A stretch of DNA of 60,060 nt, from the NCBI GenBank assembly GCA_017459985.1, contig JAFUBX010000017.1:1-60060 (forward strand), given 5' to 3'. The translations under genes and the position numbers were made by a program. A model generated the notes under the pieces. The model was not told where the DNA came from. It ran no database searches and saw only the letters and a list, made by a program, of their open reading frames with translations. Within the stretch, counting starts at the first letter, position 1. Every line of letters starts with the position of its first letter. This document shows positions 19,571 to 59,890 of the stretch, piece after piece. Origin of the DNA: Parasporobacterium sp. Its GTDB lineage: Bacteria > Bacillota > Clostridia > Lachnospirales > Lachnospiraceae.

Positions 19571-19615
19571 CGGCGGTTCTGTGGAAATACTTTCTGCGGA
19601 GCCGCCGCTTTTTTT
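19571..19615 (+). terminator. Rho-independent terminator after the CD1845-like gene
   Basis: Fourteen paired positions (19571-19584 with 19594-19607, some G-T pairs, core CGGCGG/CCGCCG) enclose a 9-base loop and run into seven T at 19609-19615. The structure lies where an upstream-extended relaxase frame would begin, which argues for the relaxase start at 19641. Confidence 0.75.
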
Positions 19616-19640
19616 GATAAAGGCGAAAGGCGGTGAGAGG

Positions 19641-21041
19641 ATGGCGGCGACCAGGCTGATTGCAATGCATGTGAATAAAGGGAAAACACTGGCACAGTGT
19701 CTGGAAGCCAGGACGGACTATGCCCAAAATCCGGGGAAAACGGAAAAGGGGAATCTGGTCACTGCCTATGAATGCGATCCCATGACTTGCGATGAAGAGT
19801 TCCTGCTCTCCAAGCGGCAGTACCGGCAGTACACAGGCAGAGAACAGAGGGGCGATGTGATCGCCTATCAGATCCGGCAATCCTTCAAGCCGGGGGAGAT
19901 CACAGCGGAAGAAGCAAACCTTGTCGGCTATGAGCTGGCCCTGGCCTTTACGAAAGGACGGCACGCCTTCATCGTAGCCACACATACAGACCGAGCGCAC
20001 ATCCATAACCACATCATTTTCAATTCCACATCCCTGGACTGCAGACGGAAGTTTCGCGATTTTCATCGCTCCAACATGGCGCTGCAAAAAGTCAGCGACC
20101 GTATCTGCCTGGAACATGGAGTGTCCGTCATTGAGCCGAAGCCATACCGCGAGAGGGTGAAACGGACGGAGTATCCAAAGAGACCAAAACTGCGGAATCA
20201 TATCTGCGAAGAGATTGACAGAATTCTCTCCGGGAAGCCGAAGGATTTTGAAGAGTTCCTCCGTCGGCTGGAGGCCGCCGGTTATGAGATCAAGCGGGGA
20301 AAGCAGATATCGGTAAAAGGTCCGGAGCAGAAACGCTTCATCCGGCTGCGGTCTCTGGGTGAAGGATATAAGGAAAACGATATCCGCGACCGGATTGCCG
20401 GAAAGGTGCTCCACGCAGGAAGCCGGAGCAGTCAGCCTCACGGAAAGCCCCGCTTCAATCTTCTGATCGACATCCAGCAGCGGATGCAGCAGGGAAAGGG
20501 TGCCGAGTATGAGCGGTGGGCGAAGGTATATAACCTGAAGCAGATGTCGGAGACCTTCCTGTTTATGAGGGAGCAGCACATCGAGAGCTTTGAAGATCTG
20601 TATGAAAAGACCGATGCCGCGGTCTCCCGTTTCAACGATTTGAACAGCAGGATCAAAGATGCGGAATCACAGATGGCGGCAAACCTGGCCATGCAGAAAC
20701 ACATCCAGAACTACGCAAAGACCAGAGATGTCTATGAGGCTTACTGCAAGTTCGGATACAGTAAAAAATTCTTTGAGGAACACCGCGCTGAGATCACACT
20801 TCACAAGGCTGCGAAGGAAGCCTTCAACGCCGCAGGAGCGGCAAAGCTGCCGACGATCCGGGAGCTGCGGCAGGAATACGCACAGCTGATCGTGCAGAAA
20901 AAGGAAGCATACAAAGGCTACCGCGAGGCAAAACGGGAAATGCAGGAGCTGCTGAAAGCCAGACAGAACGTGGAGCAGTTCTATGGCGATGACCTGAAGA
21001 AAGAGCGGGAAGCCGCCAGGCGGCAGCGGAAAGAATTGTAA
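19641..21041 (+). CDS. Relaxase (MobA/MobP-type mobilisation nuclease)
   Basis: A 466-residue relaxase that would nick oriT and pilot the single strand during transfer. The N-terminus MAATRLIAMHVNKGKTLAQCL and the metal-binding motif HTDRAHIHNHIIFNSTSLD (near residue 115) give the HxDxxHxHNH signature of MobA/VirD2 relaxases, with the likely catalytic Tyr upstream in the NPGKTEKG..YECD region. The C-terminal 200 residues are helical and charged (coiled-coil-like from about 330). ATG 19641 has GTGAGAGG before it; the longer in-frame start at 19581 falls inside a terminator. It is the last gene of the transfer module. Confidence 0.9.
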   Translation: MAATRLIAMHVNKGKTLAQCLEARTDYAQNPGKTEKGNLVTAYECDPMTCDEEFLLSKRQYRQYTGREQRGDVIAYQIRQSFKPGEITAEEANLVGYELALAFTKGRHAFIVATHTDRAHIHNHIIFNSTSLDCRRKFRDFHRSNMALQKVSDRICLEHGVSVIEPKPYRERVKRTEYPKRPKLRNHICEEIDRILSGKPKDFEEFLRRLEAAGYEIKRGKQISVKGPEQKRFIRLRSLGEGYKENDIRDRIAGKVLHAGSRSSQPHGKPRFNLLIDIQQRMQQGKGAEYERWAKVYNLKQMSETFLFMREQHIESFEDLYEKTDAAVSRFNDLNSRIKDAESQMAANLAMQKHIQNYAKTRDVYEAYCKFGYSKKFFEEHRAEITLHKAAKEAFNAAGAAKLPTIRELRQEYAQLIVQKKEAYKGYREAKREMQELLKARQNVEQFYGDDLKKEREAARRQRKEL

Positions 21042-39743: not shown

Positions 39744-39959
39744 ATGAAGAAAAAGAGTATGTCAGTCAGGGAGATGGGCCGGATGCTCGGCCTTGGGAAG
39801 ACCAACTCTTACTGGCTGGTTAAGAAGCATTATTTTGAGACGATCCTGGTCGCCGGGAAGATGCGGGTGCTGGTAGACAGCTTTGAGGAATGGTATCAAA
39901 ACCAGACGCATTATAAGAAAGTCGCTATTCCCACCGATAGCGGAGAGGAGGCGAGGTAA
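39744..39959 (+). CDS. xis: Excisionase-like protein
   Basis: A 71-residue basic protein with the excisionase winged helix (MSVREMGRMLGLGKTNSYWLVKKHYF, then VAGKMRVLVDSFEEWY). It overlaps the integrase start by 1 bp. Xis proteins bend attachment-site DNA and push Int toward excision. GGAAAGGAC precedes the ATG. Confidence 0.8.
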   Translation: MKKKSMSVREMGRMLGLGKTNSYWLVKKHYFETILVAGKMRVLVDSFEEWYQNQTHYKKVAIPTDSGEEAR

Positions 39960-41380
39960 TGGCATCGATCATCAAGAGACGAAAGAAATACTCTGTTGTG
40001 TACCGCTACGAGGATGAGCAGGGTAACGAGCGTCAGAAATGGGAAACCTTCGCCACGCTGGCAGAAGCGAAAAAGCGGAAGCTGGAAGTGGAGTTCAAGC
40101 AGGAAAACAATGAATTTGTCGCGCCTACGACAAAGACGATCAATGACCTGCTTTCGGAGTACATGAGCATCTACGGCCTGAATACCTGGGCGATCTCCAC
40201 GTATGAGAGCCGTCAGGCACTGATCTCCAATTACATATCCCCGCTGATCGGGGATGTGCTCCTGGATGATGTGACACCCAGGATGATGGATAAATTCTAT
40301 CGGGAGCTGCTGACAGTGAAATCCGTCGGCAGCAAATATGTAAAACCCCGGAATGAGTATGTTTCCCCGCACATCGTGCGCGAGATCCATAAGCTTCTCC
40401 GGAACGCTTTTAATCAGGCGGTGAAATGGGAACTGATGACCAGAAATCCAGTGGAGCATGCGACACTTCCGAAGGAGGAGCATACGCCGCGGGATATCTG
40501 GACGGCGGAAGTGCTCTTCAAAGCACTGGATGCCTGTGAAGACGATAATCTTCTACTGGCTATGAACCTGGCGTTTTCCTGCACGCTCCGCATGGGAGAG
40601 CTGCTGGGATTGACCTGGGACTGCGTTGACATTTCCCAGACCAGCATCGATGCCGGGCAGGCCTATATTTTTGTGAATAAGGAGCTGCAGCGGGTACGGC
40701 GCGATGCACTGGAGGCCATGAATGAAAAAGGTGTGATCCTGAAGTTTCCGATGGCTATTCGTGGGATGAACACGCTGCTTGTTTTGAAGGAGCCGAAAAC
40801 GAAGACCAGCGTCCGGAAGATTTTTCTTCCGAGAAGCGTGGCTGAAATGCTCGCAAAGCACAAGCAGGAACAGGATGAGATCAAGGCGCTTTTCGGGGAG
40901 GAATACACGGATTACGGTCTGGTCTTTGCCTCTACAAATGGCAGACCGATGGAGGCATCCAATATCACCCGGCTGTTTAATGACCTGATCAAGAAACATG
41001 ACCTCCCGAAAGTCGTATTTCACAGCCTCCGCCACACCAGCATTACTTATAAGCTGAAGCTGAACGGCGGCGATATGAAGTCGGTGCAGGGAGATTCCGG
41101 ACATGCACAGTTGAAGATGGTGGCGGATGTCTATTCGCACATCATTGATGACGACCGGTGCCTGAATGCACAGCGGATGGAGGAGGCTTTTTATTCCGGA
41201 CAGAGGAAGCAGGAAGAGTCTGCTGTGATTCCGGAGATTCCGCAGATTGCCGACGGTGGTCGGAATGGAGACACCATCGATGCATCAGGAGAAGATGCCT
41301 CCGATGCCGCGCTGCTGATGCGTTTGCTGCAGAAGCCGGAAATGGCACAGCTTTTGAAGACGTTGGCGCAGAGCTTATGA
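39959..41380 (+). CDS. int: Tyrosine integrase of the ICE
   Basis: A 473-residue tyrosine recombinase. It has an N-terminal arm-binding domain (SIIKRRKKYSVVYRYEDEQG), a SAM-like core-binding domain (about 60-160) and a C-terminal catalytic domain. Catalytic residues are Arg in CTLRMGELLGLTWD (near 209), the HxxR box HSLRHTSITYK near 356, and HAQLKMVADVYSH with the Tyr nucleophile near 393. A Gly/Asp-rich tail of about 70 residues follows. It lies 2 kb from the tRNA-derived attachment site at 43331 and is the likely enzyme acting there. Confidence 0.93.
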   Translation: MASIIKRRKKYSVVYRYEDEQGNERQKWETFATLAEAKKRKLEVEFKQENNEFVAPTTKTINDLLSEYMSIYGLNTWAISTYESRQALISNYISPLIGDVLLDDVTPRMMDKFYRELLTVKSVGSKYVKPRNEYVSPHIVREIHKLLRNAFNQAVKWELMTRNPVEHATLPKEEHTPRDIWTAEVLFKALDACEDDNLLLAMNLAFSCTLRMGELLGLTWDCVDISQTSIDAGQAYIFVNKELQRVRRDALEAMNEKGVILKFPMAIRGMNTLLVLKEPKTKTSVRKIFLPRSVAEMLAKHKQEQDEIKALFGEEYTDYGLVFASTNGRPMEASNITRLFNDLIKKHDLPKVVFHSLRHTSITYKLKLNGGDMKSVQGDSGHAQLKMVADVYSHIIDDDRCLNAQRMEEAFYSGQRKQEESAVIPEIPQIADGGRNGDTIDASGEDASDAALLMRLLQKPEMAQLLKTLAQSL

Positions 41381-49072: not shown

Positions 49073-50890
49073 ATGGATTCGGTCAGAGTTCGATATATCG
49101 AAGAGCAGATTGCAAAGCTTCCGAAAGGAAACATCACATTTAGGACAATAAAAGGGAAAAAATATGCTTATCTTCAGTGGACGGAGGGAGGCAGGCAGCG
49201 CAACCGCAGAGTACAGGATGACGAGCTGCCCGTTCTTATAGAACAGATTAAAGAGCGGAAATCTTTGGAAAGTAAATTGAAAGAGACTCCGCAGACAATC
49301 ATATCAGCCCAAATACCACAAACAGAAAGCTGGTTTTCAGAAGTAAAGACAGGACAGGAACTCCTGGAGTTCGCGGAACCTGTTCGGTCTTTTAAGAAGC
49401 GAGAGAGTTTTTCAGTACTTCACGATTATGTATATGGACGTGGCAGCGACAGGGTGTTTATTCTTTACGGGCTCAGAAGGACAGGCAAGACAACACTGAT
49501 CAGGCAGCTGATTCTGGAAATGCCTGAAGAGATGCAGAAAAAGACAGCCTTTATACAGGTAACCCCCGGAGTTGATCTGGCAAAGATCAATCTGGACATG
49601 AAGCAGCTGAAGCGGCAGGGTTATCAGTTTATCTTTATTGATGAAGTGACACTGATGGACGACTTCATTGAAGGAGCTGCCTTATTCTCAGACATTTTTG
49701 CGACCACTGGAATGAAGATTGTGTTATCAGGTACAGACTCTTTGGGGTTTTTGTTTTCTGAAGACGAACAGCTGTATGATCGCTGTTATATGACGCACAC
49801 TACGTTCGTTCCTTACAGGGAATTTGAAAAGGTTCTCGGCATCAAGGGGATTGATGAATACATCCGTTATGGCGGGACTATGAGTTTGGGAGGGATCGAT
49901 TATAACCATGCTGGAATGACCTTTGCAACAGCCAAAAGTACAGCAGAGTATGTAGATAGTGCTATAGCACGCAACATTCAGCATTCATTGAAAAATTATC
50001 AATATGGCGGGCACTTCCGGAATCTGGAAGAATTATTTGAAGCAGATGAACTGACAAGTGCAATTAACCGTATTGTGGAAGATATTAATCATCGCTTTAC
50101 GCTAAGTGTTTTAACCCGGGATTTCAAATCCAATGATCTGGCATTGTCAGCAAGAAATCTTCTGCATGACAGAGAGGAACCAAACACGATTCTTCAACAG
50201 ATTGATACGGATGAGGTTACAGAAAAACTCCGCCAGCTGCCTGAAATCAGGAATAAGCCGGAGCAGACAGTTCCAATCAGTGATGTCCATCGGGCAGAAA
50301 TAAAGGAGTATCTGGATCTTTTGGATATTACTGTGGACATTGATACGCGATATCTTTCGAATCTGAATCGAAAGGATAAACATACAGTCATCACACAGCC
50401 CGGCCTGCGATATGCACAGGCAGAAGCACTGGTCAGATCACTGATGGAAGATGATGTATTCCGCTCTTTTTCTCTGACGGAAAGAAATAATGTCATCGCC
50501 AGGATCATGAGTGATATTCAGGGCCGTATGATGGAAGATATTGTTCTATTGGAGACAAAGCTGGCACTTCCGGATTGTCAGGTTTTTAAGCTGGTGTTTG
50601 CACGCGGTGAGTTTGATATGGTTGTATTTGATCCCAGAGCAGCTTCCTGTAAAATCTACGAAATCAAACACAGTGATAAGATGGTTCCCGAACAATACCG
50701 GCATTTAATCGATCCGGAAAAATGCAAAGACACAGAGTTCTATTTTGGCCCCATTATCGGAAAGTATATTGTCTATCGAGGAGAAACCTTAAAGGCAAAC
50801 AGCATAGATTATCTCAATGTCGAAGATTACCTTGTGGGACTGGGAAACAAGTTACGAGTGGGACACAAACTGGGTATTGCGCGTGATTAA
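49073..50890 (+). CDS. AAA ATPase with N-terminal DNA-binding-like domain and nuclease-like end
   Basis: A 605-residue protein. Residues 1-65 form a short domain (VRYIEEQIAKLPKGNITFRT, IKGKKYAYLQWTEGGRQRNR) that occurs at the N-terminus of several Lachnospiraceae ATPases and toxins and may bind the operator. Residues 115-300 form the ATPase: Walker A LYGLRRTGKTTLIRQ near 139, Walker B FIFIDEVTLMDD near 183 and IVLSGTDSLG near 219. The C-terminal 150 residues carry EYEIKHSD-like KIYEIKHSDKMVPEQYRHL, resembling a DUF4143/PD-(D/E)xK end. Function unknown; self-regulation suggests a defence or stabilisation gene. Ends convergently, overlapping the racemase gene by 4 bp. Confidence 0.78.
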   Translation: MDSVRVRYIEEQIAKLPKGNITFRTIKGKKYAYLQWTEGGRQRNRRVQDDELPVLIEQIKERKSLESKLKETPQTIISAQIPQTESWFSEVKTGQELLEFAEPVRSFKKRESFSVLHDYVYGRGSDRVFILYGLRRTGKTTLIRQLILEMPEEMQKKTAFIQVTPGVDLAKINLDMKQLKRQGYQFIFIDEVTLMDDFIEGAALFSDIFATTGMKIVLSGTDSLGFLFSEDEQLYDRCYMTHTTFVPYREFEKVLGIKGIDEYIRYGGTMSLGGIDYNHAGMTFATAKSTAEYVDSAIARNIQHSLKNYQYGGHFRNLEELFEADELTSAINRIVEDINHRFTLSVLTRDFKSNDLALSARNLLHDREEPNTILQQIDTDEVTEKLRQLPEIRNKPEQTVPISDVHRAEIKEYLDLLDITVDIDTRYLSNLNRKDKHTVITQPGLRYAQAEALVRSLMEDDVFRSFSLTERNNVIARIMSDIQGRMMEDIVLLETKLALPDCQVFKLVFARGEFDMVVFDPRAASCKIYEIKHSDKMVPEQYRHLIDPEKCKDTEFYFGPIIGKYIVYRGETLKANSIDYLNVEDYLVGLGNKLRVGHKLGIARD

Positions 50891-52008
50891 GTGATTCGGG
50901 GTAATCTTTTTCCAAGCCTGCTCAGGATTTCATTCGTAATCGTATGGCATTGCTCTGCAAGATCATAGACCGATATTTCAAGATCTCCGGATCTGCCGAT
51001 GAGAACGGCGGTGTCTCCGGCACGGGCATCCGGTACGTCAGTGATATTCACCATCATCTGATCCATGCAAATGACCCCGACAGTCGGGCAACTGTACCCA
51101 TTTATCAGTACGTTCCCTTTTCCATTTGAGAGTTCCCTGGGAAATCCGTCTGCATATCCGATAGAAAGTACGGCAATGCGGCAATTGGTATCTGCGGTAA
51201 ATTGCTGCCCATAACCAACCGTTTCGCCGGGATGCACGTCCCGGATCAGCGAGATACGGGCCTTGAGTGTTAATACGGGCTTCAGTTCGATCGGACTTGA
51301 TGCAAGATGGCTTCGTTTCCCGAATACACCATATAATGTAATTCCGGGACGAATGAGATCCCCGGCGAACTGCGGGTAATTCAGGATACCATAACTGGCC
51401 AGAATATGCTTCTTCCCATAGGAAAGATGGCGATCATCCAGAAACGATAAAACCCGTTGAAAACGATAAGACTGTTGTCCGGTATAGTTCTTATCGGCAG
51501 GCTCTCTGGTTTCATCACAGCAAAGATGGGTATAAATTCCATCGATGATAAGGTTTTTCATATTCCAGAGTGATAAAAGATCGTCCCCTTTATCAAAAGC
51601 AAATCCAAGTCTGTGCATCCCCGTGTCGATTTTTACATGAACATGGAGTTTATGCCCGCAGGATTCCAGCTGTTTTGCGTATTCAGGATCAATGGCAGTT
51701 TGCGTCAGATGATATTTCCGGAGCAAGGGAAATAAGTCCGGATGCGTGTAACCCAGGATCAGAATCGTGCCATTTATTCCGGACTTTCGAAGTTCTATTC
51801 CTTCTTCTATGGAGGCCACACAAAAACGACGGAGACCATGTCTGCTTAATTCTTTTGCAATCAAAGCAGCCCCGTGCCCGTAGGCATTTGCTTTGACCAC
51901 AGGCATCAGTTCACATCCTGCAGGAACCAGGCTTTTTAATGCCTGCACATTGTGTAAAAGGTGTTCCATATTCAGTTCAATCCATGCCCGGTTTGGCCTG
52001 CCCCTCAT
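50887..52008 (-). CDS. alr: PLP-dependent alanine/serine racemase, VanT-type catalytic domain
   Basis: A 373-residue fold-type III racemase: the PLP lysine in VVKANAYGHGAA (near 38), HVKIDTGMHRLGF near 132, and catalytic Tyr in SIGYADGFPREL near 278. It overlaps the VanG-type ligase gene by 4 bp, as vanT does in D-Ala-D-Ser clusters, so D-serine supply for the ligase is the likely job. Unlike VanT of the vanC/vanG types it has no N-terminal membrane domain, so it could also be an ordinary alanine racemase. Confidence 0.88.
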   Translation of the reverse strand: MRGRPNRAWIELNMEHLLHNVQALKSLVPAGCELMPVVKANAYGHGAALIAKELSRHGLRRFCVASIEEGIELRKSGINGTILILGYTHPDLFPLLRKYHLTQTAIDPEYAKQLESCGHKLHVHVKIDTGMHRLGFAFDKGDDLLSLWNMKNLIIDGIYTHLCCDETREPADKNYTGQQSYRFQRVLSFLDDRHLSYGKKHILASYGILNYPQFAGDLIRPGITLYGVFGKRSHLASSPIELKPVLTLKARISLIRDVHPGETVGYGQQFTADTNCRIAVLSIGYADGFPRELSNGKGNVLINGYSCPTVGVICMDQMMVNITDVPDARAGDTAVLIGRSGDLEISVYDLAEQCHTITNEILSRLGKRLPRIT

Positions 52009-53051
52009 TTGGACATCCCTTCCCGGATGATCGTGTCAAGGATCTGTTCAAATGTCATTCCGGCAGCTTTCAGCATGTTCGGGAAACGGCTGTGGGAAGT
52101 GAATCCGGGAATCGTATTGACTTCGTTGAATACGAGTTTTCCTGATTCTGTCAAGAACATATCCACTCTCGCGAATCCATCACAGCCCAGAATATGATAG
52201 ATTTTCCCCGCAGTTTCTTTGATTGCATCTGCTGTACGGGGATTGATCGGAGCCGGAACATAGATCTGCGAACTTTTCAGAGTGTACTTTTCCTCATAAT
52301 CAAAAAACTCCTGTGCCAGTTCGATCTTATCCACTTCTCCGATGGTCAGACGGTCTTTGCCGATAATGGCACATCCCACTTCAAATCCGGTAATCGTTTC
52401 TTCCAGAATGACCGCGTCGTCATAAGAAAACGCATTTTTAAGAGCTTTTGGAAGCTCTGATGCATTATGAATTTTTGAAATCCCAAAGGAAGATCCGGCC
52501 CGGACAGGCTTCATAAAAATCGGATAGCCAATGATCGCTGCAAGAGAAGAGATCTCTTCTATGGGCGTGTCTTTGCTGAGCAGAACGGATTCCGGGACAG
52601 CAATTCCGGCAGATTTCACCAGCTGATGTGCCCGATATTTGTCCATGCAGAGAGCGGAAGACAGGGGACCACAGCCGATAACAGGAATGCCAGCCAGTTC
52701 CAGCATTCCCTGTACCGTACCGTCTTCCCCCTTCTGCCCATGAAGAACCGGGAAGGCAGCATCTATGTGGATAGATTCCGGGCCCGATGCGGTTTGTTTT
52801 TTAAATGCGGAATTTGACTGATCAAAAGAAAGTAAAACAGGAGTGCAGGTATCAGGGGAATTCCAGGAATCAGCCGGGATATAACCAGCGGGTCCATCAT
52901 AGAAATACCAGCTTCCTTGTCTGGAAATGCCGATGAGAACGGGGGTGTAAAGATCCGTATTGATGTGTGTGATCACGGCATAAGCAGATTGAAGGGAAAC
53001 CTGGTATTCCGGGGAACATCCGCCAAACAGGATTGCGATCGTTTTCTTCAT
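52005..53051 (-). CDS. vanG: D-alanine-D-serine ligase, VanG type
   Basis: A 348-residue ATP-grasp ligase. The start IAILFGGCSPEYQVSLQSAYAV, FPVLHGQKGEDGTVQGM, SALCMDKYRAHQLV, KPVRAGSSFGI and FNEVNTIPGFTSHSR are D-Ala-D-X ligase blocks. The loop around FFDYEEKYTLKSSQIYVPA has the EKY element of the VanC/VanG (D-Ser-adding) ligases and not the KAA/H type of VanA/VanB (D-Lac) or the Y-K type of housekeeping Ddl. Product D-Ala-D-Ser would lower glycopeptide affinity. Adjacent racemase and VanRS strengthen the call. No vanX/vanXY is near. Confidence 0.8.
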   Translation of the reverse strand: MKKTIAILFGGCSPEYQVSLQSAYAVITHINTDLYTPVLIGISRQGSWYFYDGPAGYIPADSWNSPDTCTPVLLSFDQSNSAFKKQTASGPESIHIDAAFPVLHGQKGEDGTVQGMLELAGIPVIGCGPLSSALCMDKYRAHQLVKSAGIAVPESVLLSKDTPIEEISSLAAIIGYPIFMKPVRAGSSFGISKIHNASELPKALKNAFSYDDAVILEETITGFEVGCAIIGKDRLTIGEVDKIELAQEFFDYEEKYTLKSSQIYVPAPINPRTADAIKETAGKIYHILGCDGFARVDMFLTESGKLVFNEVNTIPGFTSHSRFPNMLKAAGMTFEQILDTIIREGMSK

Positions 53052-53113: not shown

Positions 53114-53179
53114 AGCTTAGCAAAAACAGACAGGAGGTTTTTTAAGATCCGGTTAGGAAATCCTTAAGAAAATCCTTAG
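53114..53179 (-). promoter_or_regulatory. vanG promoter: four 11-bp repeats plus -10 at fixed distance
   Basis: Read on the minus strand, four 11-bp units follow each other without gap (plus coordinates 53179-53169, 53168-53158, 53157-53147, 53146-53136), each beginning CTAA, CTTAA, CCTAA or CTTAA. The -10 (TAAGCT, plus 53119-53114) starts 26 bp after the TTAA of the last unit. Same geometry as at the vanZ and ABC promoters, with a weaker -10. Probable VanR operator. Confidence 0.65.
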
Positions 53180-53221
53180 AAAATACAGAGATTTTATATA
53201 GAAAGAAAAGCCCTTGAAGCC

Positions 53222-53286
53222 TTAAGGATATTTTAAGAAATCATCAAGGAAGAATTAAGAAACGATTGTCTTTACAGGGGTATACT
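53222..53286 (+). promoter_or_regulatory. vanZ promoter: four 11-bp repeats plus TATACT
   Basis: Four contiguous 11-bp units: TTAAGGATATT (53222), TTAAGAAATCA (53233), TCAAGGAAGAA (53244), TTAAGAAACGA (53255). TATACT is at 53281-53286, exactly 26 bp after the last unit begins. No -35 hexamer is needed or seen, as expected for an OmpR/VanR-type activated promoter. A near-identical block lies before the ABC operon. Confidence 0.75.
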
Positions 53287-53346
53287 ATATGAAGATACGG
53301 CTGTTTATGGAAAAGCAGAGTCTAATATAAAACGGAGGAAGTCGCT

Positions 53347-53988
53347 ATGGAAGAAGTTGTTTTGGTCTGTTATGATGTCCTGACAGTCATGCTGCCGACA
53401 GGGGTCCTGACAATCTTATCTGTTATTAGGGGAAAAAAACAGGGAAGATTGGATGTTCGCCGGAGAGCCATACGGATGATCCTGTTTGGCTTATATCTGT
53501 TTGGTCTTTTTCATGTAACCGGTGCCGGAACGTTGTACGATGCGATCCGGTATGGTGCGGAGTTCCATCCTTCTCAGCTTAATCTGGTTCCTTTTTCAGA
53601 CGATATGATAAACCGGTCTGTCCTGATCAGCCATGCCGTTTTGAACATCCTTCTATTTATTCCGTTTGGCGTTTTGCTGCCGCTTATCTGGAGAAATCTT
53701 CAAAAGGTATGGCAGGTGATCTTGACAGGATTCCTGTTGTCAGTCGTTGTTGAACTGAGTCAATTGCTGAATCACAGAAGCACAGATATCGATGACCTCA
53801 TCCTGAATGTTTTCGGAACATTTATCGGAATTCTGCTGTTCAGATTTATCTTCCGAAAAGGAAAACAAAAAGGATATGCAGGGAGAACCGAAATTATTGA
53901 GATGGTGATCTTTATAGCAGCAGCGTTCCTGTGCCGGTTTCTGGCCTTTGATGAATTCGGGGCAGCAAAACTGCTGTATGGATTCTGA
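53347..53988 (+). CDS. VanZ family membrane protein
   Basis: A 213-residue protein with about five membrane helices (residues 10-25, 38-55, 95-118, 122-140, 165-185, 188-200) and the VanZ core: FHPSQLNLVPFSDD, VLNILLFIPFGVLLPL, LLSVVVELSQLL and NHRSTDIDDLILNVFGTFIG. VanZ of Tn1546 gives low-level teicoplanin resistance by an unknown mechanism. Its promoter carries the presumed VanR operator. ATG after ACGGAGG. Confidence 0.88.
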   Translation: MEEVVLVCYDVLTVMLPTGVLTILSVIRGKKQGRLDVRRRAIRMILFGLYLFGLFHVTGAGTLYDAIRYGAEFHPSQLNLVPFSDDMINRSVLISHAVLNILLFIPFGVLLPLIWRNLQKVWQVILTGFLLSVVVELSQLLNHRSTDIDDLILNVFGTFIGILLFRFIFRKGKQKGYAGRTEIIEMVIFIAAAFLCRFLAFDEFGAAKLLYGF

Positions 53989-53993
53989 TCAGG

Positions 53994-55124
53994 TCATTCT
54001 TTCGGCAGCATTACGGTAAAGCAGATGTTATCTCCTTCACTTTCTGCGATAATGGTTCCTCCATGCAAAGTGATGATCTCTTTGGCAATCGCAAGCCCCA
54101 GGCCTGCACCACCGGTATGGGAAGTCCGGGATTCATCCAGCCGGTAAAACTTCTCGAACAGGGAAGCGAGTTGTTCTTGTGGAATGTGTCTGCCTTTGTT
54201 CGCAAAGGTGATACAGACGCGATTGCCGGCGTTCTTTGCAGTAATGGTGATCCGGGAATCCAGGAAACTATAGGCGGCTGCATTTTTCAGGATATTGTTG
54301 AATACCCTGGCCAGCTTGTCTGGATCGGCACAGACTGTCAGGTCTTCTTCCGCCTGAAGATCCACCGTATTTCCATTGGCAGACAAGACCGGGTGCAGTT
54401 CATCAATAAGTTGAACTAGCATATAGGAGAGATCCAGAGAGGTTTTGCTGATCGTGATCTCCTGGGAATTATATCTGGTAATCTCAAAGAATTCATCGAT
54501 CATTTTTTCCAGGCGGTATGCTTTTTCCAATGTAATACCGACATATTTTTCCCGCTTTTCTGCCGGAAGATCCTGGATCTCGGAAAGCAGGTTCAGATAA
54601 CCGATCACAGAGGTGAGCGGAGTCCTAATATCATGGGCCAGGTACATCACCAGCTCATCTTTGCGCTGCCGGGCCAGTCGGGATTCCATTTCATGTTTTT
54701 CCAGGCTGGCTTTGACCTCTTTCAGCTTCGCTTCCGTTGCAGCCATTTCGGGAGGCATGCGAATTTCGGTTGCGGGATCAGAGATGGCAGAGATTCCCTG
54801 ATTGATCACATCGAAATATTGGGTGAAACTGTTCATGATAATTCTCAGAGAGATCAGAAAAATGATGATTACCACTGCGATCCATAACAGATCCATATAA
54901 TTCCGGATCCAGTTAAAATAAAACATGTACGCATTACTGTAATCCATATCCAATATACGATGCAGAAGCCGGACGATCACATCCGCAAACCTGCCTTTTA
55001 CGATCAAAAAATAAAAGATAACAAACAGAAGAAACGTAATGCCTGCGATTACGCCAAACCTGAGCATGAGTTTTCTTTTGACTTGTGTGTAATCGGAGTT
55101 GCTTTTCTTATTGCCTCGTTTCAA
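53994..55124 (-). CDS. vanS: VanS-type sensor histidine kinase
   Basis: A 376-residue kinase with two membrane helices (about residues 22-46 and 77-96) enclosing a short extracellular loop, a HAMP-like linker, the H-box AHDIRTPLTSVIGYL (His near 162), an N box FNNILKNAAAYS near 278 and G boxes near 320-345 (HTGGAGLGLAIAKEI). The short sensor loop and sequence resemble VanS of the VanG/VanB type. Starts inside the 3' end of vanR (17-bp overlap). Confidence 0.85.
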   Translation of the reverse strand: MKRGNKKSNSDYTQVKRKLMLRFGVIAGITFLLFVIFYFLIVKGRFADVIVRLLHRILDMDYSNAYMFYFNWIRNYMDLLWIAVVIIIFLISLRIIMNSFTQYFDVINQGISAISDPATEIRMPPEMAATEAKLKEVKASLEKHEMESRLARQRKDELVMYLAHDIRTPLTSVIGYLNLLSEIQDLPAEKREKYVGITLEKAYRLEKMIDEFFEITRYNSQEITISKTSLDLSYMLVQLIDELHPVLSANGNTVDLQAEEDLTVCADPDKLARVFNNILKNAAAYSFLDSRITITAKNAGNRVCITFANKGRHIPQEQLASLFEKFYRLDESRTSHTGGAGLGLAIAKEIITLHGGTIIAESEGDNICFTVMLPKE

Positions 55125-55815
55125 TTTTATACCCCACTCCCCATACGGTCTTGATATAGTTTGGATGTTCCGCCGTGTCGTTCATTTTCTCCCGCAAATG
55201 GCGGATGTGCACGGTAATCGTATTATTGTTCTTGATATAGTATTCATCCTTCCAGATCTGATGGAACAGATCTTCCGAGCTGACCACTTCTCCTTTGTGC
55301 TCCAGCAGGATCCGGAGGATGGAGAACTCCGTTGGCGTCAGGGTTAAAGGCTTTTCATTCAGGAAACATTCATGGGTGCGGATATTGAGCAGAAGGCCTG
55401 CATGGACGATTTCTTCCGGTTCTTCTTTTTCAGCGTTAGCCAGATTGTATTTCTTATACCGCCTAAGCTGCGCTTTGACCCTGGCCACAAGCTCCAGGGG
55501 CAGGAAGGGCTTCGTCATATAATCATCCGCTCCGAGGGTTAGGCCGTTGATCTTATCGGCCTGTTCTTCCTTAGCAGTCAGCATGATCACGGGATAGGTG
55601 TACTGTTCCCGGATCTTCCGGAGCAGGGTAAAGCCGTTGATCTCCGGAAGCATGATATCCAGAATGGCAAGATCCAATTCTGTGTTTTGGATACAGTCCA
55701 AAGCATCCCGGGAAGAGTAATATTTATAAACCGTATAATTCTCGTTTTGCAGATACACTTCCACAAGATCTGCAATCTCCGGTTCATCATCTACGATCAG
55801 AATCTTTTCAGACAT
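55108..55815 (-). CDS. vanR: VanR-type response regulator
   Basis: A 235-residue OmpR-family regulator. The receiver has Asp-Asp (VDDEPE), phospho-Asp in LAILDIMLP (near 51) and Lys in YMTKPF (near 101); the winged helix (FLNEKPLTLTPTEFSIL, KDEYYIKNNNTITVHIRHLR) closes the protein. MSEKILIVDDE at 55815 is the start, with GAAGGGA before it; an in-frame ATG at 55929 would add 38 unrelated residues. Presumed to bind the 11-bp repeat arrays at 53136-53265 and 55933-56008. Confidence 0.88.
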   Translation of the reverse strand: MSEKILIVDDEPEIADLVEVYLQNENYTVYKYYSSRDALDCIQNTELDLAILDIMLPEINGFTLLRKIREQYTYPVIMLTAKEEQADKINGLTLGADDYMTKPFLPLELVARVKAQLRRYKKYNLANAEKEEPEEIVHAGLLLNIRTHECFLNEKPLTLTPTEFSILRILLEHKGEVVSSEDLFHQIWKDEYYIKNNNTITVHIRHLREKMNDTAEHPNYIKTVWGVGYKIETRQ

Positions 55816-55884
55816 GTTTGGTTTCCCTTCATTTCCGGCTGTAGAACCAGGTGTCACGTGTCCCTGGCTTCTGCCCGATAGTTC

Positions 55885-55954
55885 TATATAGTATAGCAAA
55901 TCTTTATCCGGATTTATGAGTTTTTCCATGAGAAATCCTTAAGATTTTCTTAAG
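55885..55954 (-). promoter_or_regulatory. vanRS upstream region with two phased repeats
   Basis: On the minus strand two adjacent 11-bp units, CTTAAGAAAAT and CTTAAGGATTT (plus 55954-55944 and 55943-55933), match the VanR-type repeat. A TATACT box follows at plus 55890-55885, and a weaker TAAATC lies 26 bp after the last unit. Autoregulation is likely, but which -10 is used cannot be told. Confidence 0.5.
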
Positions 55955-55964
55955 ATGCCGGAGG

Positions 55965-56029
55965 TTAGGGAATCCTTAAGAAAAGCTCAAGGAAGCGTTA
56001 AAGACTCCCCGTATTCTTCCGGATATACT
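55965..56029 (+). promoter_or_regulatory. ABC operon promoter: four 11-bp repeats plus TATACT
   Basis: Units TTAGGGAATCC (55965), TTAAGAAAAGC (55976), TCAAGGAAGCG (55987) and TTAAAGACTCC (55998); TATACT at 56024-56029, again 26 bp after the last unit begins. Order of units, phasing and distance equal those at 53222-53286. The 22 bp at 55963-55984 differ at one position from 53151-53172 in the other intergenic region. Confidence 0.78.
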
Positions 56030-56083: not shown

Positions 56084-56617
56084 ATGAAGAACATAAGGAA
56101 ATACGGATGGTTGTTTGGTATAGGAAGCCTGATTCTTTTAAATCTGACAGGATGCACAGAGACGGTAACATCTTCTTCCCAAGAGGCAATACCGAATCCG
56201 GCGGAACAGAAAACGGTGACCGGGATGCAGGAACCGGAGACAACATTGCAGGAACCGGAAGCCGGGTTACATAATGGCGCTTATTATGATGGTTCCAATC
56301 TCCAGGGGCATGTGACACAGTTAACAGCGGATGGATTTATGATGGCGCCTGCTTTTATATCGCAGGAAGCAGAAGGGGAAGTTATGGCAGAAGCTGCACC
56401 GGAAGCAGATAACAAAGAGCAGGAAGTCGAGATTATCTACGCTGATCCGGTATCCATTCAGATCGCCACAATTGACAGCGCCAGTCTCACCGAAATCTCC
56501 CGGGAAGACGCAGAGAAAGAAGTCATCAAGAAGCAGACCGATGTCTGCATTTTCGGGAGCTGTCAGGATACCCGTCATTGGATTGCGGATAAGATCCTGA
56601 TCATCAGATGGAGGTAG
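56084..56617 (+). CDS. Putative lipoprotein of the VanRS-linked ABC operon
   Basis: A 177-residue lipoprotein: signal peptide with lipobox LNLTGC (Cys24), a Glu/Pro/Thr-rich linker (residues 28-65) and an uncharacterised outer domain. A short C-terminal segment looks irregular (IFGSCQDTRHWIADKILIIRW). AAAGGAG before the ATG. First gene of the operon; a periplasmic-side partner or sensor of the transporter is likely (inference). Confidence 0.65.
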   Translation: MKNIRKYGWLFGIGSLILLNLTGCTETVTSSSQEAIPNPAEQKTVTGMQEPETTLQEPEAGLHNGAYYDGSNLQGHVTQLTADGFMMAPAFISQEAEGEVMAEAAPEADNKEQEVEIIYADPVSIQIATIDSASLTEISREDAEKEVIKKQTDVCIFGSCQDTRHWIADKILIIRWR

Positions 56618-56620
56618 GCC

Positions 56621-57805
56621 ATGAATATAATTTACAGGGCAGGCTGCTATGTCTTCCGAAAGAAAGGACGGACGATCCTGTTATTGATGGTTTTTACAGT
56701 GTCTGTTTTTTTGATACAGGGGATTTTTATGGTACGGGAAAATGCCAAAAATATACTGAAAGAGCTGGCTGAAAATGCAGAAGGCAGAGTTGCTCTGGAA
56801 TACGCAGATTCTTCCACGGGATTTCAAAAGGCAGAACTGGAGAAGATAGAAAACCAGGATAATGTGGCCTGGATCAATTACTTGTATGAAGAAGTTTTTT
56901 CACCAAAGGATCTGGAACTGATTGGAGATGATCATGGAGACGGCCGCTGCCGGATTCATATGCAGGATAAAATTCAAAACGACAGCCCTTTTGAAGAAAA
57001 AATGTACCGGGTTGTTAAGGGGCGTTATCCGGAAAGAACAGGAGATATATTGATTAATCTGTTCCTGGCGCAGGCGAACGGTTTGTCCGTAGGAGATATG
57101 CTTTTTGGAGATCATCAGATCACGGGGATGTTTTTGGCCGGAAGTGAGAGACAGCAGACAGATCATGTCATTCCGGAAAACAGAATCGAGAATCAGATTT
57201 ATATGAAGATAGATTCAAGCCATTCAAAAAAAGAGGAAGATCGGGCGGAGATACCGCTGCAAAGGATCGTATGCTATCTGGAAGATCCGGAGCTTTTGGA
57301 GCAGACGATACAGGAATTCCGGGAATTCTGCCCGGATCCGGTTCATATCACTTCTGACGATCATGTGTATCAGAAAATGAAAACGACGATGACGCAAAGC
57401 ACCAGGATTACCTTATTGATACTGATTCTGACGATTCTGACCGGAGGATTTATTTCCTGCTTTCTCCTGATGATGTGGATACGCAGCCGGAAAAAGGAAA
57501 TGGCTGTATTTCGGAGTATGGGGATGTCCAAAGGAACGATACTGGGACAGCTTCTGTTTGAGGAGACATTTATTTTTGCAGGTGCTTTTCTGATTTCTTC
57601 CCTGGGTAGTATTTGGGGACTGCCAGGGCTGTTACAGAAAATGGAATTACTGTCGGAAGCGGATATTTCCGGCCTGATCACGGGAAAAGACTTGTGCATG
57701 CAGGGAATTTGCGGATTGCTGTCCGTACTCTTTCTGACAGCAGCCAACGGTTTGCCGGCTACGAGTGGAAATATAAAAAACATCTTAAGTTCCATGGAGG
57801 AGTAA
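56621..57805 (+). CDS. FtsX/MacB-like ABC permease 1
   Basis: A 394-residue permease: helix 1 at about 18-38, an extracellular domain of about 220 residues (residues 40-255), then three helices at 262-285, 305-330 and 350-375. The TRITLLILILTILTGGFISCF region and the FRSMGMSKGTILGQLLFEE loop are typical FtsX-family features. Such proteins use mechanical force on extracytoplasmic substrates. Begins 3 bp after the lipoprotein stop. Confidence 0.85.
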   Translation: MNIIYRAGCYVFRKKGRTILLLMVFTVSVFLIQGIFMVRENAKNILKELAENAEGRVALEYADSSTGFQKAELEKIENQDNVAWINYLYEEVFSPKDLELIGDDHGDGRCRIHMQDKIQNDSPFEEKMYRVVKGRYPERTGDILINLFLAQANGLSVGDMLFGDHQITGMFLAGSERQQTDHVIPENRIENQIYMKIDSSHSKKEEDRAEIPLQRIVCYLEDPELLEQTIQEFREFCPDPVHITSDDHVYQKMKTTMTQSTRITLLILILTILTGGFISCFLLMMWIRSRKKEMAVFRSMGMSKGTILGQLLFEETFIFAGAFLISSLGSIWGLPGLLQKMELLSEADISGLITGKDLCMQGICGLLSVLFLTAANGLPATSGNIKNILSSMEE

Positions 57806-57811
57806 AGAAAC

Positions 57812-59251
57812 ATGAGTTTGCTGAATCTGAGCCTGAAGGCGATCTATCGAAAATGGAAGCGCTCGCTTCTTTTGGTATTGATCATCGTTGTTATCACGGT
57901 ATTTTTCTTTCTGGGATGGAGTCTGAAAAACGCTTCTGTAAAAACGCAGAATGCGGGAAAACAGGCCATTGGCGCATCTTTCCGCCTGGAACAGAACGAA
58001 GAAAACCGGCATGTGCGTTTAACTAAAGCCTGCCGGAAAATAGGAGATAATCAGGAAGGATATGCAGACGGGGTGCATGCAGAACAGCTGGCAAGCGGGG
58101 CATGGCTTATTTATACGGATCATTTGTTTGAAACGCTTGTTTTGTCTGATATCCAAAGAATTGCCGCTGTACCGGGAATCGCAGAGTATAACATTGTTAC
58201 CTCCAATACCGTTGTCCACCCGGTAAACTTTCTTCGCGTGGAAGATCCGGAAACGGATCAAAGCAAGGATGAAGGAGGGGTATCGCTCCGGGGGGAATGG
58301 AATATGAAACTGGATTTTGAAGTGCAAAAGGGAAATGTGGAGATCCTGCAGGGGCGAATGATTGTTCCGGGTGACATTAATGTATGCGTGCTGTCACGGC
58401 AGTTGGCGGAGAAGAACGGGCTGCAGGTTGGCAATCGGGTTTCCTTTAACAGTTGGAAGGAACCGGACAGCTCTGCGGAGTTCCAGGCGGAGATCATCGG
58501 GATCTATGATTCCAAAGCGGGAATCCCTGCGTATATGAATGGGGACAGTTACCGGAGTGAAAATATTATCTTTACAGATCTTGATTTTCCCTGTAAAGCG
58601 GAAGGACATGCACAGGATCCATTATACCAGTATGCAACATTCACGGTAGAAGATGTAGATCAATACGATGCTGTCAAAGACCGCATTCTGTCTTTGGATA
58701 TCCAATGGGAGAGGTATGATTTTCTGGATCATACAGGGATGAGTGAGACGATCGCGGATAATTACAAAGATTTGCAGAATATCAGCAGGTTGCTGCTGAT
58801 CCTTTCGTTTGCATCAGGGCTGCTGATTTTATGTCTTATCTTCCAATTCTGGATCAGAGGCCGGATCCGGGAAATCGGGGTTTTTCTCGCTTTAGGGAAA
58901 CGAAAGATCCAGATTATTCTGCAGATTCTATTGGAAGGGATCCTCATCGGAATCATTGGCTTTTTCCTGGCCTTTGCAGCTGCCGAACCTGCCTGCAGCC
59001 TCCTGGAGGGATTGATCTCGGACTATCATATACAACTGCAGGAAGAACAAAAACTGTCGGATGCAGGGATGGTGGCAAACTCCGTACAGGAAGAGGATGC
59101 CCGGATTGTAGGGGTGGAGACAGAAATGAATGAAAGTATGGTCATCCTTTGTGCAATCTCTGTGTTCGGAATGTTGGCAGGATCCATACTGCTGGCGGTA
59201 GGGTTTGTGATGATCAGAAAGCCAAAAGAAATCCTGGCAAAAATGATATGA
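57812..59251 (+). CDS. FtsX/MacB-like ABC permease 2
   Basis: A 479-residue permease of the same family: helix 1 at residues 18-38, a large outer domain (about 40-300), and three C-terminal helices (near 322-345, 370-395 and 445-468) with the FLALGKRKIQIILQILLEG loop. Two unlike FtsX-type permeases with one ATPase match the Vex1/Vex3 pattern. Confidence 0.85.
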   Translation: MSLLNLSLKAIYRKWKRSLLLVLIIVVITVFFFLGWSLKNASVKTQNAGKQAIGASFRLEQNEENRHVRLTKACRKIGDNQEGYADGVHAEQLASGAWLIYTDHLFETLVLSDIQRIAAVPGIAEYNIVTSNTVVHPVNFLRVEDPETDQSKDEGGVSLRGEWNMKLDFEVQKGNVEILQGRMIVPGDINVCVLSRQLAEKNGLQVGNRVSFNSWKEPDSSAEFQAEIIGIYDSKAGIPAYMNGDSYRSENIIFTDLDFPCKAEGHAQDPLYQYATFTVEDVDQYDAVKDRILSLDIQWERYDFLDHTGMSETIADNYKDLQNISRLLLILSFASGLLILCLIFQFWIRGRIREIGVFLALGKRKIQIILQILLEGILIGIIGFFLAFAAAEPACSLLEGLISDYHIQLQEEQKLSDAGMVANSVQEEDARIVGVETEMNESMVILCAISVFGMLAGSILLAVGFVMIRKPKEILAKMI

Positions 59252-59266
59252 GGGAGGAAAAGAAAC

Positions 59267-59890
59267 ATGCTGACATTGGAAAACATTGTATATTACTATA
59301 AAGCACAACCGGAAAAGATGATTCTGGAGCATTTGTCCCGGCAGTTTGAAGCCGGAAAAATGTATGCGATACTGGGAGAAAGCGGATCCGGAAAAACGAC
59401 ACTGCTTTCCCTGATGGCAGGGCTTGATATTCCGACGGAGGGAAGGATCCTGGTTTCAGGTGAAGATATCCGACATAGGAATCTGAATGAATACAGAAGA
59501 CACCATGTGAGCCTGGTCTTCCAGAATTATAATCTGATCGATTATCTGACCCCGCTTGAAAATGTAAAATTGGGAGGAAGGAAAGATCCGATGGAATTAT
59601 TACAACTGGTAGGACTGACGGAGAAGGAGGCCAGAAGGAACATCCTGCAGTTATCCGGAGGACAACAGCAGCGGGTAGCCATTGCGAGGTCGATTGCGGG
59701 GGATGCCCCGATTCTTCTGGCGGATGAACCGACCGGGAACCTGGATGAATCGACTGCATTGGAGATCATCCGCATTTTCCAGGATCTGGCTCATACGCAA
59801 AGAAAGTGTGTGATCATCGTTACCCACAGCAGTCAGTTGGCTGAGGAAGCAGATATTGTACTGCTGTTAAAAGACGGAAAACTTGCATAA
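59267..59890 (+). CDS. MacB/LolD-type ABC transporter ATPase
   Basis: A 207-residue ATPase: Walker A GESGSGKTT (residues 38-46), signature LSGGQQQRVA near 128, Walker B ILLADEPTGNLDE near 150 and H-loop VTHSSQ near 186. The compact length is normal for the FtsE/LolD/MacB branch. Last gene of the operon, 15 bp after permease 2. Confidence 0.92.
   Translation: MLTLENIVYYYKAQPEKMILEHLSRQFEAGKMYAILGESGSGKTTLLSLMAGLDIPTEGRILVSGEDIRHRNLNEYRRHHVSLVFQNYNLIDYLTPLENVKLGGRKDPMELLQLVGLTEKEARRNILQLSGGQQQRVAIARSIAGDAPILLADEPTGNLDESTALEIIRIFQDLAHTQRKCVIIVTHSSQLAEEADIVLLLKDGKLA

What the first reader, a model, noticed from the sequence alone, without database searches (positions are those of the whole stretch)
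53114..56029. Shared VanR-type regulon: four 11-bp repeats with a -10 at a fixed 26 bp
Three promoters, for vanG (-), vanZ (+) and the lipoprotein-ABC operon (+), have the same architecture: four contiguous 11-bp units (consensus about TTAAGRAANNN) and a -10 box starting exactly 26 bp after the last unit's TTAA. The two + promoters also share unit order (TTA.., TTAAG, TCAAGG, TTAA) and TATACT. The vanR upstream region has two such units. A one-helical-turn direct-repeat array is what an OmpR-type regulator recognises, and VanR lies inside the locus. A four-unit array is longer than the usual two-site pattern.
Basis: partly seen in the sequence, partly recalled or inferred. Interest (0 to 1): 0.82.

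Follow-up and report, generated by a model that had tools for sequence, protein, structure and literature searches.

The report
VanR-controlled four-repeat promoter arrays
Four promoters in a gut bacterium's vancomycin-resistance-type locus carry the same evenly spaced DNA repeats, very probably docking sites that let one sensor-controlled regulator switch on the resistance genes, a VanZ protein and a membrane pump together.

Summary
The vanG(-), vanZ(+) and lipoprotein-ABC(+) promoters each have four 11-bp units and a -10 box starting 26 bp after the last unit begins. The vanR promoter, described as having two units, reads as four, with the -10 at 25 bp. A promoter model trained on other genomes' vanR promoters, window excluded, ranks exactly these four places first in the 60-kb window, both strands. 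A pattern for the architecture occurs three times in the 3.53-Mb genome, all three these promoters. Such arrays are in 38 of 47 VanR-ortholog loci (partly the training loci) and 0 of 72 control loci. The models also rank first the vanR and vanH promoters of the VanA cluster, which VanR is reported to bind. I conclude that these are VanR operators: tandem OmpR/PhoB-type protomers covering the -35 position of promoters with poor -35 boxes. The operator kind is known. The four-unit, 26-bp grammar with two sub-types, and a lipoprotein-ABC exporter in a VanR regulon, appear new within the papers searched. Binding and induction were not tested.

The parts
53135..53178 (-). vanG operator: four 11-bp units TAAGGATTTTC TTAAGGATTTC CTAACCGGATC TTAAAAAACCT
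   Evidence: Top place of the window with both models trained without it (R 28.4; T 37.6)
53114..53119 (-). predicted -10 of vanG(-vanT), TAAGCT, 26 bp after the start of unit 4
   Evidence: transcript start not mapped
53222..53265 (+). vanZ operator: TTAAGGATATT TTAAGAAATCA TCAAGGAAGAA TTAAGAAACGA
   Evidence: R 17.8, T 2.5; 0 mismatches in the architecture pattern
53281..53286 (+). predicted -10 of vanZ, TATACT, 26 bp after the start of unit 4
55910..55953 (-). vanR operator: TTAAGAAAATC TTAAGGATTTC TCATGGAAAAA CTCATAAATCC (four units, the last two degenerate)
   Evidence: R 21.2; array part alone 43.7, best of window
55890..55895 (-). predicted -10 of vanRS, TATACT preceded by TGC (extended -10), 25 bp after the start of unit 4
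55965..56008 (+). lipoprotein-ABC operator: TTAGGGAATCC TTAAGAAAAGC TCAAGGAAGCG TTAAAGACTCC
   Evidence: R 20.6, T 5.9; 0 mismatches in the architecture pattern
56024..56029 (+). predicted -10 of the lipoprotein-ABC operon, TATACT, 26 bp after the start of unit 4
55108..55815 (-). vanR, OmpR/PhoB-family response regulator, VanR family
   Evidence: NCBIfam vanR_ACDEGLN 381.7 bits, cut-off 350
53994..55124 (-). vanS, sensor kinase
   Evidence: HK_VanS_ACDEFG 370.3 bits, under its cut-off of 400
52005..53051 (-). vanG, D-Ala-D-Ser ligase
   Evidence: D_ala_D_ser_VanG 519.6 bits, cut-off 495
50887..52008 (-). vanT catalytic part, serine racemase
   Evidence: vanT-G-Cterm 527.8 bits, cut-off 460
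53347..53988 (+). vanZ-family membrane protein
   Evidence: PF04892 83.9 bits, cut-off 30.1
56084..56617 (+). predicted lipoprotein, first gene of the ABC operon
   Evidence: LTGC lipobox read from the sequence; no Pfam or NCBIfam family at 0.001
56621..59890 (+). two FtsX/MacB-type permeases and an ATPase (56621-57805, 57812-59251, 59267-59890)
   Evidence: PF02687, PF12704, PF00005

Best explanation
The arrays are operators of the VanR encoded between them. On a cell-envelope signal VanS phosphorylates VanR. VanR protomers then line up head-to-tail on the four 11-bp units (probably two dimers), on one face of the helix, the last unit lying over the place where a -35 box would be. All four promoters lack a good -35 box, so bound VanR recruits RNA polymerase to the -10 26 bp (vanR: 25 bp) beyond the start of the last unit. 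One signal thus switches on vanG-vanT (D-Ala-D-Ser precursors), vanZ, the lipoprotein-ABC exporter and vanRS itself (positive feedback). Shown here: architecture, conservation, association with VanR-type loci, identity of the recognition helix. Inferred: binding, cooperativity, activation, inducing signal.
For: Promoter model from 46 ortholog vanR upstream regions (window excluded) scanned over the window: the top four places are vanG 28.4, vanR 21.2, ABC 20.6, vanZ 17.8; next 4.6 (overlapping the vanG array), then -5.6. 60 block shuffles of the window reach at most 6.6. Second model from 14 target promoters of relatives: vanG 37.6, ABC 5.9, vanZ 2.5, next -6.2; block shuffles at most 0.5. A place over 18 with either model in 38 of 47 VanR-ortholog loci (these include the training loci) and 0 of 72 control loci, 1.04 Mb. 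Offset 26 for the -10 in 18 of 20 target arrays not used for training. Same recognition helix in VanR-A. First genes after the 32 target arrays in relatives are VanG, VanY, VanZ, VanW, S11 carboxypeptidases and ABC ATPases in 31. Best -35 match in each of the four promoters is 3 of 6.
Against: No binding or expression data. 9 of 47 VanR-ortholog loci have no place over 18 with either model; four of these have a different recognition helix, five do not. A VanR-like array (T 23.6) precedes an ABC transporter beside a different two-component system in G374 (L212), so such arrays are not exclusive to VanR. VanRG of E. faecalis protects -100 to -43 and does not bind its own operon's promoter; that paper places the VanR sites of P_R and P_H upstream of the -35 too (PMC4405338), and another draws the vanHAX -35 and -10 boxes apart from the VanR site, with an insertion between them (PMC4914660). 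At the VanA vanR promoter a perfect TATAAT lies 16 bp after the start of unit 4, 10 bp before the model's -10 TAAATT.
Confidence: 0.87

Rival explanations
1. Another OmpR-family regulator of the same genome (CiaR- or PhoP-like) is the main user of the TTAAG arrays, and VanR lies between them by coincidence.
For: CiaR of streptococci uses TTTAAG-N5-TTTAAG, also an 11-bp period (PMC8186281 passage). The own-genome VanR search scored 33 candidate places, though only one passes 1e-70. A similar array lies next to a different two-component system in L212.
Against: In the own genome the architecture pattern with up to 2 mismatches occurs only in this locus. Arrays go with VanR orthologs (38 of 47 loci, training loci included) and not with 72 loci of other regulators. 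Both models find the VanA promoters.
Confidence: 0.07
2. Only two units per promoter are real VanR sites, as in the published 12-bp-site description; the others are AT-rich background in register by chance.
For: Units 3 and 4 of vanR-type promoters and units 1 and 3 of target-type promoters match the motif weakly (mean matches to TTAAGRAA 5.0 and 4.5; 4.4 and 3.5 of 8). Published accounts speak of one, two or three 12-bp sites (PMC4405338; PMC11702846).
Against: Unit 1 (TTAGGATTTTC) and unit 4 (TTAAAGT) of the target model are conserved in their own way. vanZ and ABC here have four good units. The published 80-bp footprint at vanH is longer than two 12-bp sites; matches to the published consensus there are 33 bp = 3 x 11 apart.
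Confidence: 0.2
3. The arrays are repressor or dual operators: VanR covers the -35 position to keep the promoters off.
For: Unit 4 overlaps the -35 position, where repressors often bind (general knowledge).
Against: None of the promoters has a good -35 box (best 3 of 6), as expected for activated promoters. VanR of VanA type is reported to increase transcription at such promoters (PMC4405338 passages).
Confidence: 0.05

Closest known systems
VanR-A promoters P_R and P_H of Tn1546 (VanA)
   Same: VanR about 71% identical, same recognition helix.
   Different: Described in print as one and two 12-bp sites upstream of the -35. Before vanH three units are strong and the units between them weaker (7, 5, 3, 7, 3, 8 of 8). 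The predicted vanH -10 sits at the apex of a strong inverted repeat and I have not seen a mapped start. At P_R a perfect TATAAT lies at 16 bp instead.
VanRG operator at P_YG of E. faecalis BM4518
   Same: Direct repeats with consensus (T/C)CGTANGAAA(T/A)T, close to CTTANGAAAAT here; poor -35; -10 TACAAT as in several relatives.
   Different: Three sites, footprint -100 to -43 upstream of the -35; VanRG does not bind its own promoter; an extra repressor VanUG (PMC4405338).
PHO boxes of PhoB/PhoP
   Same: OmpR/PhoB-type regulator on tandem 11-nt direct repeats, head-to-tail (PMC4415409 passage).
   Different: Other unit sequence. A minimal box is two units; arrays of four TTAACA-like repeats for B. 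subtilis PhoP are recalled, and one search showed no paper with that string.
CiaR box of streptococci
   Same: TTTAAG-N5-TTTAAG, 11-bp period (PMC8186281).
   Different: Two units; different regulon.

Membership tests
VanR-regulated promoter | Lies in a locus with a VanR-family regulator | tested here: met
   vanR_ACDEGLN over its cut-off
VanR-regulated promoter | Direct repeats resembling the published VanR consensus | tested here: met
   Units read about TTANGRAAAT; VanA stretches match the published consensus with 1-2 mismatches in the same register; window sites rank first with ortholog models
VanR-regulated promoter | Protection by VanR in a footprint | not testable with these tools
   Bench experiment
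VanR-regulated promoter | Induction by a cell-wall antibiotic through VanS | not testable with these tools
   No expression data
OmpR/PhoB tandem operator | Head-to-tail repeats of 11 bp | tested here: met
   Window units contiguous at 11 bp; mean best-array score over ortholog vanR upstream regions peaks at period 11 among 8-16 (20.7 against at most 18.74)
OmpR/PhoB tandem operator | Regulator with receiver and Trans_reg_C domains | tested here: met
   PF00072 and PF00486
VanG-type D-Ala-D-Ser cluster | vanG ligase and vanT racemase | tested here: met
   Both over NCBIfam cut-offs
VanG-type D-Ala-D-Ser cluster | D,D-peptidase (vanXY/vanY) in the operon | tested here: not met
   vanG and vanT overlap with nothing between; the genome's two PF02557 genes lie on other contigs and have no array
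CiaR box | TTTAAG-N5-TTTAAG used by CiaR | tested here: inconclusive
   Unit sequence overlaps; a CiaR ortholog was not searched for

The most novel reading that the evidence does not exclude
VanR-family regulators of Clostridia and enterococci obey one promoter grammar: a run of at least four protomer sites phased at 11 bp, ending over the -35, with the -10 26 bp after the last site begins. There are two sub-types: autoregulatory (best units 1-2, TG-extended -10) and target (best units 2 and 4). The textbook VanA vanH promoter, described as two 12-bp sites, is really a six-unit run. Here the grammar has been used to recruit a lipoprotein-FtsX-type exporter into a vancomycin-type regulon, joining target modification and export under one switch. 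(Probability lowered from 0.6 to 0.55 on re-check, because the VanA vanR promoter has a better -10 match at 16 bp.)
Probability: 0.55. Interest if true: 0.66.

Novelty: new variant of a known kind. Interest (0 to 1): 0.56.

Why it matters
It gives a testable promoter grammar for the VanR family that may explain why VanR protects about 80 bp at a promoter said to hold two 12-bp sites. It lets VanR regulons be read directly from genomes of gut Lachnospiraceae and kin, where 37 of 47 VanR loci show no vanG within the stretch fetched and VanR-type arrays stand before VanY, VanZ, S11 carboxypeptidases or ABC transporters. It points to a lipoprotein-ABC exporter as a candidate new partner of glycopeptide-type defence.

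Tried and rejected

The motif is too specific to this genome; ortholog units read TTAGGAAAATC TTAATAATTTC, seen when the best array of each region was printed without a threshold.

Conservation of the array at homologs of the ABC operon (17 loci) and of vanZ (29 loci), first model only: none over 10 for the ABC loci, one AT-rich 12.0 (L025) for the vanZ loci.

Close relatives for direct footprinting: none, as 13 of 13 other genomes of the genus lack a VanR at 1e-70.

Circularity checks. A blind count of 9-mers in 40 non-redundant vanR upstream regions gives TTAGGAAAA in 11, against at most 6 for any 9-mer in 200 shuffles; TTAGGAAA and TTAATA are 11 bp apart in 6 of 6 co-occurrences. The 47 loci compared with the 72 controls include those 46 training regions and the 14 training sites of the second model; only the window, the VanA locus and the target sites not used for training are out of sample. 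The threshold of 18 was set after seeing scores. Of the 80 loci, 7 served as VanR orthologs, 72 as controls and one (L045, 48%) as neither. Of the VanR hits (132 of 397 genomes), the 40 best besides the window's own were fetched.

The unit counts use the window's own motif, so relatives score lower partly by construction.

Literature. Searches listed no paper recognisable as describing 11-bp VanR arrays or a fixed 26-bp rule; the held library lacks most subscription papers, and Holman 1994 and Depardieu 2005 were seen only as references. Papers seen as matched passages only: PMC4405338, PMC8541618, PMC11702846, PMC11273654, PMC4415409, PMC8186281, PMC4914660, PMC8329863. The others were seen in search listings only.
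Full report
What is there. The window is one whole contig (C74) of a 3.53-Mb genome in 131 contigs; the closest named relatives of its VanR are Lachnospiraceae and Eubacterium assemblies. The right part holds vanT catalytic part (50887-52008 -), vanG (52005-53051 -), vanZ (53347-53988 +), vanS (53994-55124 -), vanR (55108-55815 -) and an operon of a predicted lipoprotein, two FtsX/MacB-type permeases and an ATPase (56084-59890 +). VanG, VanT and VanR exceed their curated NCBIfam cut-offs; VanS is below its own (370.3 against 400). Two divergent intergenic regions hold the arrays.

Observation. The three promoters have exactly the stated geometry: four contiguous 11-bp units and a -10 hexamer starting 26 bp after the start of the last unit. 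vanZ and ABC arrays agree at 28 of 44 positions, their spacers at 6 of 15 and their -10 at 6 of 6. The vanR promoter also reads as four units (TTAAGAAAATC TTAAGGATTTC TCATGGAAAAA CTCATAAATCC) with TATACT at 25 bp. So all four promoters of the locus belong to the set, as two back-to-back pairs.

Genome-wide uniqueness. TTAAGRAA-N3-TTAAGRAA with at most one mismatch occurs at 7 places in the genome, all 7 in these two regions. With up to two mismatches there is no excess over the reversed control (19 against 21). A pattern that I made for the whole architecture, with 17 fixed bases and at most two mismatches, gives 3 places, all named promoters; the reversed control gives 2. Without mismatches, 397 family genomes give 5 places, two of them in the window, with 1 reversed-control place. 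One of the other three lies just before a VanR ortholog (G221).

Test of the VanR assignment. I fetched the 40 best other VanR loci of the family search (66-76% identical; 132 of 397 genomes had a match) and used 7 of the 80 named loci (L039-L044 and L081, 53-67%). Their vanR upstream regions give the highest mean best-array score at period 11 among periods 8 to 16 (20.7 against at most 18.74 for four units). An EM model (44-bp array, 15-bp spacer, -10) trained on 46 of these regions, without the window, was scanned over all positions of the window on both strands. The four best places are vanG 28.4, vanR 21.2, ABC 20.6 and vanZ 17.8; the next are 4.6 (overlapping the vanG array) and -5.6. Sixty block-wise shuffles of the window reach at most 6.6. 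Three thousand shuffles of each intergenic region reach at most 12.3 and 7.3. With the array part alone the ranking starts vanR 43.7, then a + strand reading of the vanG stretch 19.1, vanZ 18.4, vanG 16.9, ABC 15.3.

A second promoter class. A model of 14 such target promoters puts vanG (37.6), ABC (5.9) and vanZ (2.5) first in the window, next -6.2; it does not pick the vanR promoter. Block shuffles of the window reach 0.5; local shuffles reach 11.5 and 3.4, so vanZ is not significant with this model taken alone. Finding arrays from the 44-bp part alone and then placing the best -10-like hexamer anywhere from 14 to 44 bp gives offset 26 in 18 of 20 non-training target arrays (the other two 25 and 27) and in 11 of 14 training ones. 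For the vanR-type model the same count, in sample, is 21 of 30.

Association with VanR. Of 72 loci of other regulators (1.04 Mb), none has. The 47 include the training loci.

Recognition helix (so named from general knowledge of the fold). ITVHIRHLREK is identical in the window's VanR, VanR-A and 31 of the 38 array-bearing relatives; the other 7 differ at one or two residues. Four loci with a clearly different helix (TVMxHIARxREK) have no place over 18. Five loci with the usual helix also have none: L040, L178, L195, L204 and L206.

The classic VanA promoters. The matches to the published 12-bp consensus before vanH lie 33 bp apart, three 11-bp steps. Read at 11 bp, six units there match the motif at 7, 5, 3, 7, 3 and 8 of 8 positions: three strong sites with weaker ones in register. 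That offers a simple reason for the 80-bp footprint at a promoter credited with two sites (PMC4405338 passage). Cautions: the predicted vanH -10 lies at the apex of a strong inverted repeat (fold z -7.9); printed accounts place -35 and -10 boxes beyond the VanR sites (PMC4405338; PMC4914660); at the VanA vanR promoter a perfect TATAAT lies at 16 bp, where the model takes TAAATT at 26. I have seen no mapped start for either.

What stands behind the arrays in relatives. The first genes after the 32 target arrays in VanR loci are VanG in 7, VanY in 5, an S11 D-Ala-D-Ala carboxypeptidase in 9, a VanZ-S11 fusion in 1, VanZ in 3, VanW in 1, an ABC ATPase in 5 and an F420_ligase-like protein in 1. 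VanG calls rest on BLAST against the window's VanG. Twenty of the 32 proteins were scanned with Pfam; 19 pass the cut-off and the F420_ligase match is just under it (24.7 against 25). In L198 the S11 frame was taken over an overlapping 82-aa frame that starts first. Of the five not covered by BLAST to VanG or Pfam, one VanZ (L169) was read from its likeness to L167, and four ABC ATPases from their near-identity to one another and BLAST to the window's ATPase. Association of vanRS with vanY, vanZ and ABC genes in bacteria without a resistance ligase is in print (PMC11273654 passages); its main text holds no occurrence of 'promoter' or 'binding site'. So its entry into the regulon looks particular to this lineage.

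Mechanism. OmpR/PhoB-type regulators bind tandem 11-bp repeats head-to-tail (PMC4415409 passage). Four units fit two dimers. With the -10 at 26 bp, unit 4 covers the -35 position, and the best -35 match in each of the four promoters is 3 of 6. This is the signature of an activator standing in for the -35. The vanZ and ABC arrays match TTAAGRAA at 30 and 28 of 32 positions, against at most 25 in 31 vanR-type and 23 in 32 target-type arrays of relatives; since the motif was read from this window, part of that difference is built in. If real, a likely effect is a lower threshold or steeper induction; that is inference.

Against, and limits. Nothing here shows binding or induction. VanRG of E. faecalis protects a region further upstream and does not touch its own operon's promoter, so the 26-bp rule is not universal. 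A similar array lies before an ABC transporter beside another two-component system in G374, so the unit alone does not name the regulator. The genome is 94.75% complete and was searched by patterns, not by the weight matrices, so a distant or diverged regulon member could be missed.

Verdict. The kind is known (VanR operators, OmpR/PhoB direct repeats). The four-unit, fixed-distance grammar with two sub-types, and this regulon's make-up, appear not to be in print as far as the searches reach.

Noticed in passing
window 1-41380: Left part looks like an integrative conjugative element: TraG-type ATPase, NlpC/P60 hydrolase, CD1107-like protein, topoisomerase, relaxase (19581-21041), 2313-aa SNF2-type helicase protein (11907-18848), phage-type integrase (39959-41380). 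The van locus lies beyond the integrase, so whether it is part of the element is open.
   Followed up: no
window 50887-53051: vanG is followed directly by the vanT catalytic part, with no vanXY/vanY dipeptidase between them as expected of a full D-Ala-D-Ser cluster; two PF02557 genes on other contigs have no VanR array.
   Followed up: partly
L212 (G374:C13), array starting at 1565 on -: VanR-like four-unit array before an ABC transporter, beside what reads as a different response regulator and kinase (no family search run): perhaps a second regulator with similar operator grammar.
   Followed up: partly
L176:4186-5745(-): A VanZ domain fused to an S11 D-Ala-D-Ala carboxypeptidase, behind a VanR target array.
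   Followed up: no
L186:9103-9924(+): A VanR target array precedes an F420_ligase-like protein (just under the Pfam cut-off), an unexpected target.
   Followed up: no
L207:4905-4957: Strong inverted repeat between vanS and vanH of the VanA cluster, with the predicted vanH -10 at its apex.
   Followed up: partly
window 53135-53265 and 55910-56008: The arrays are back-to-back in divergent pairs (43 bp apart for vanG/vanZ, 11 bp for vanR/ABC), so bound VanR on one side may affect the other promoter.
   Followed up: no
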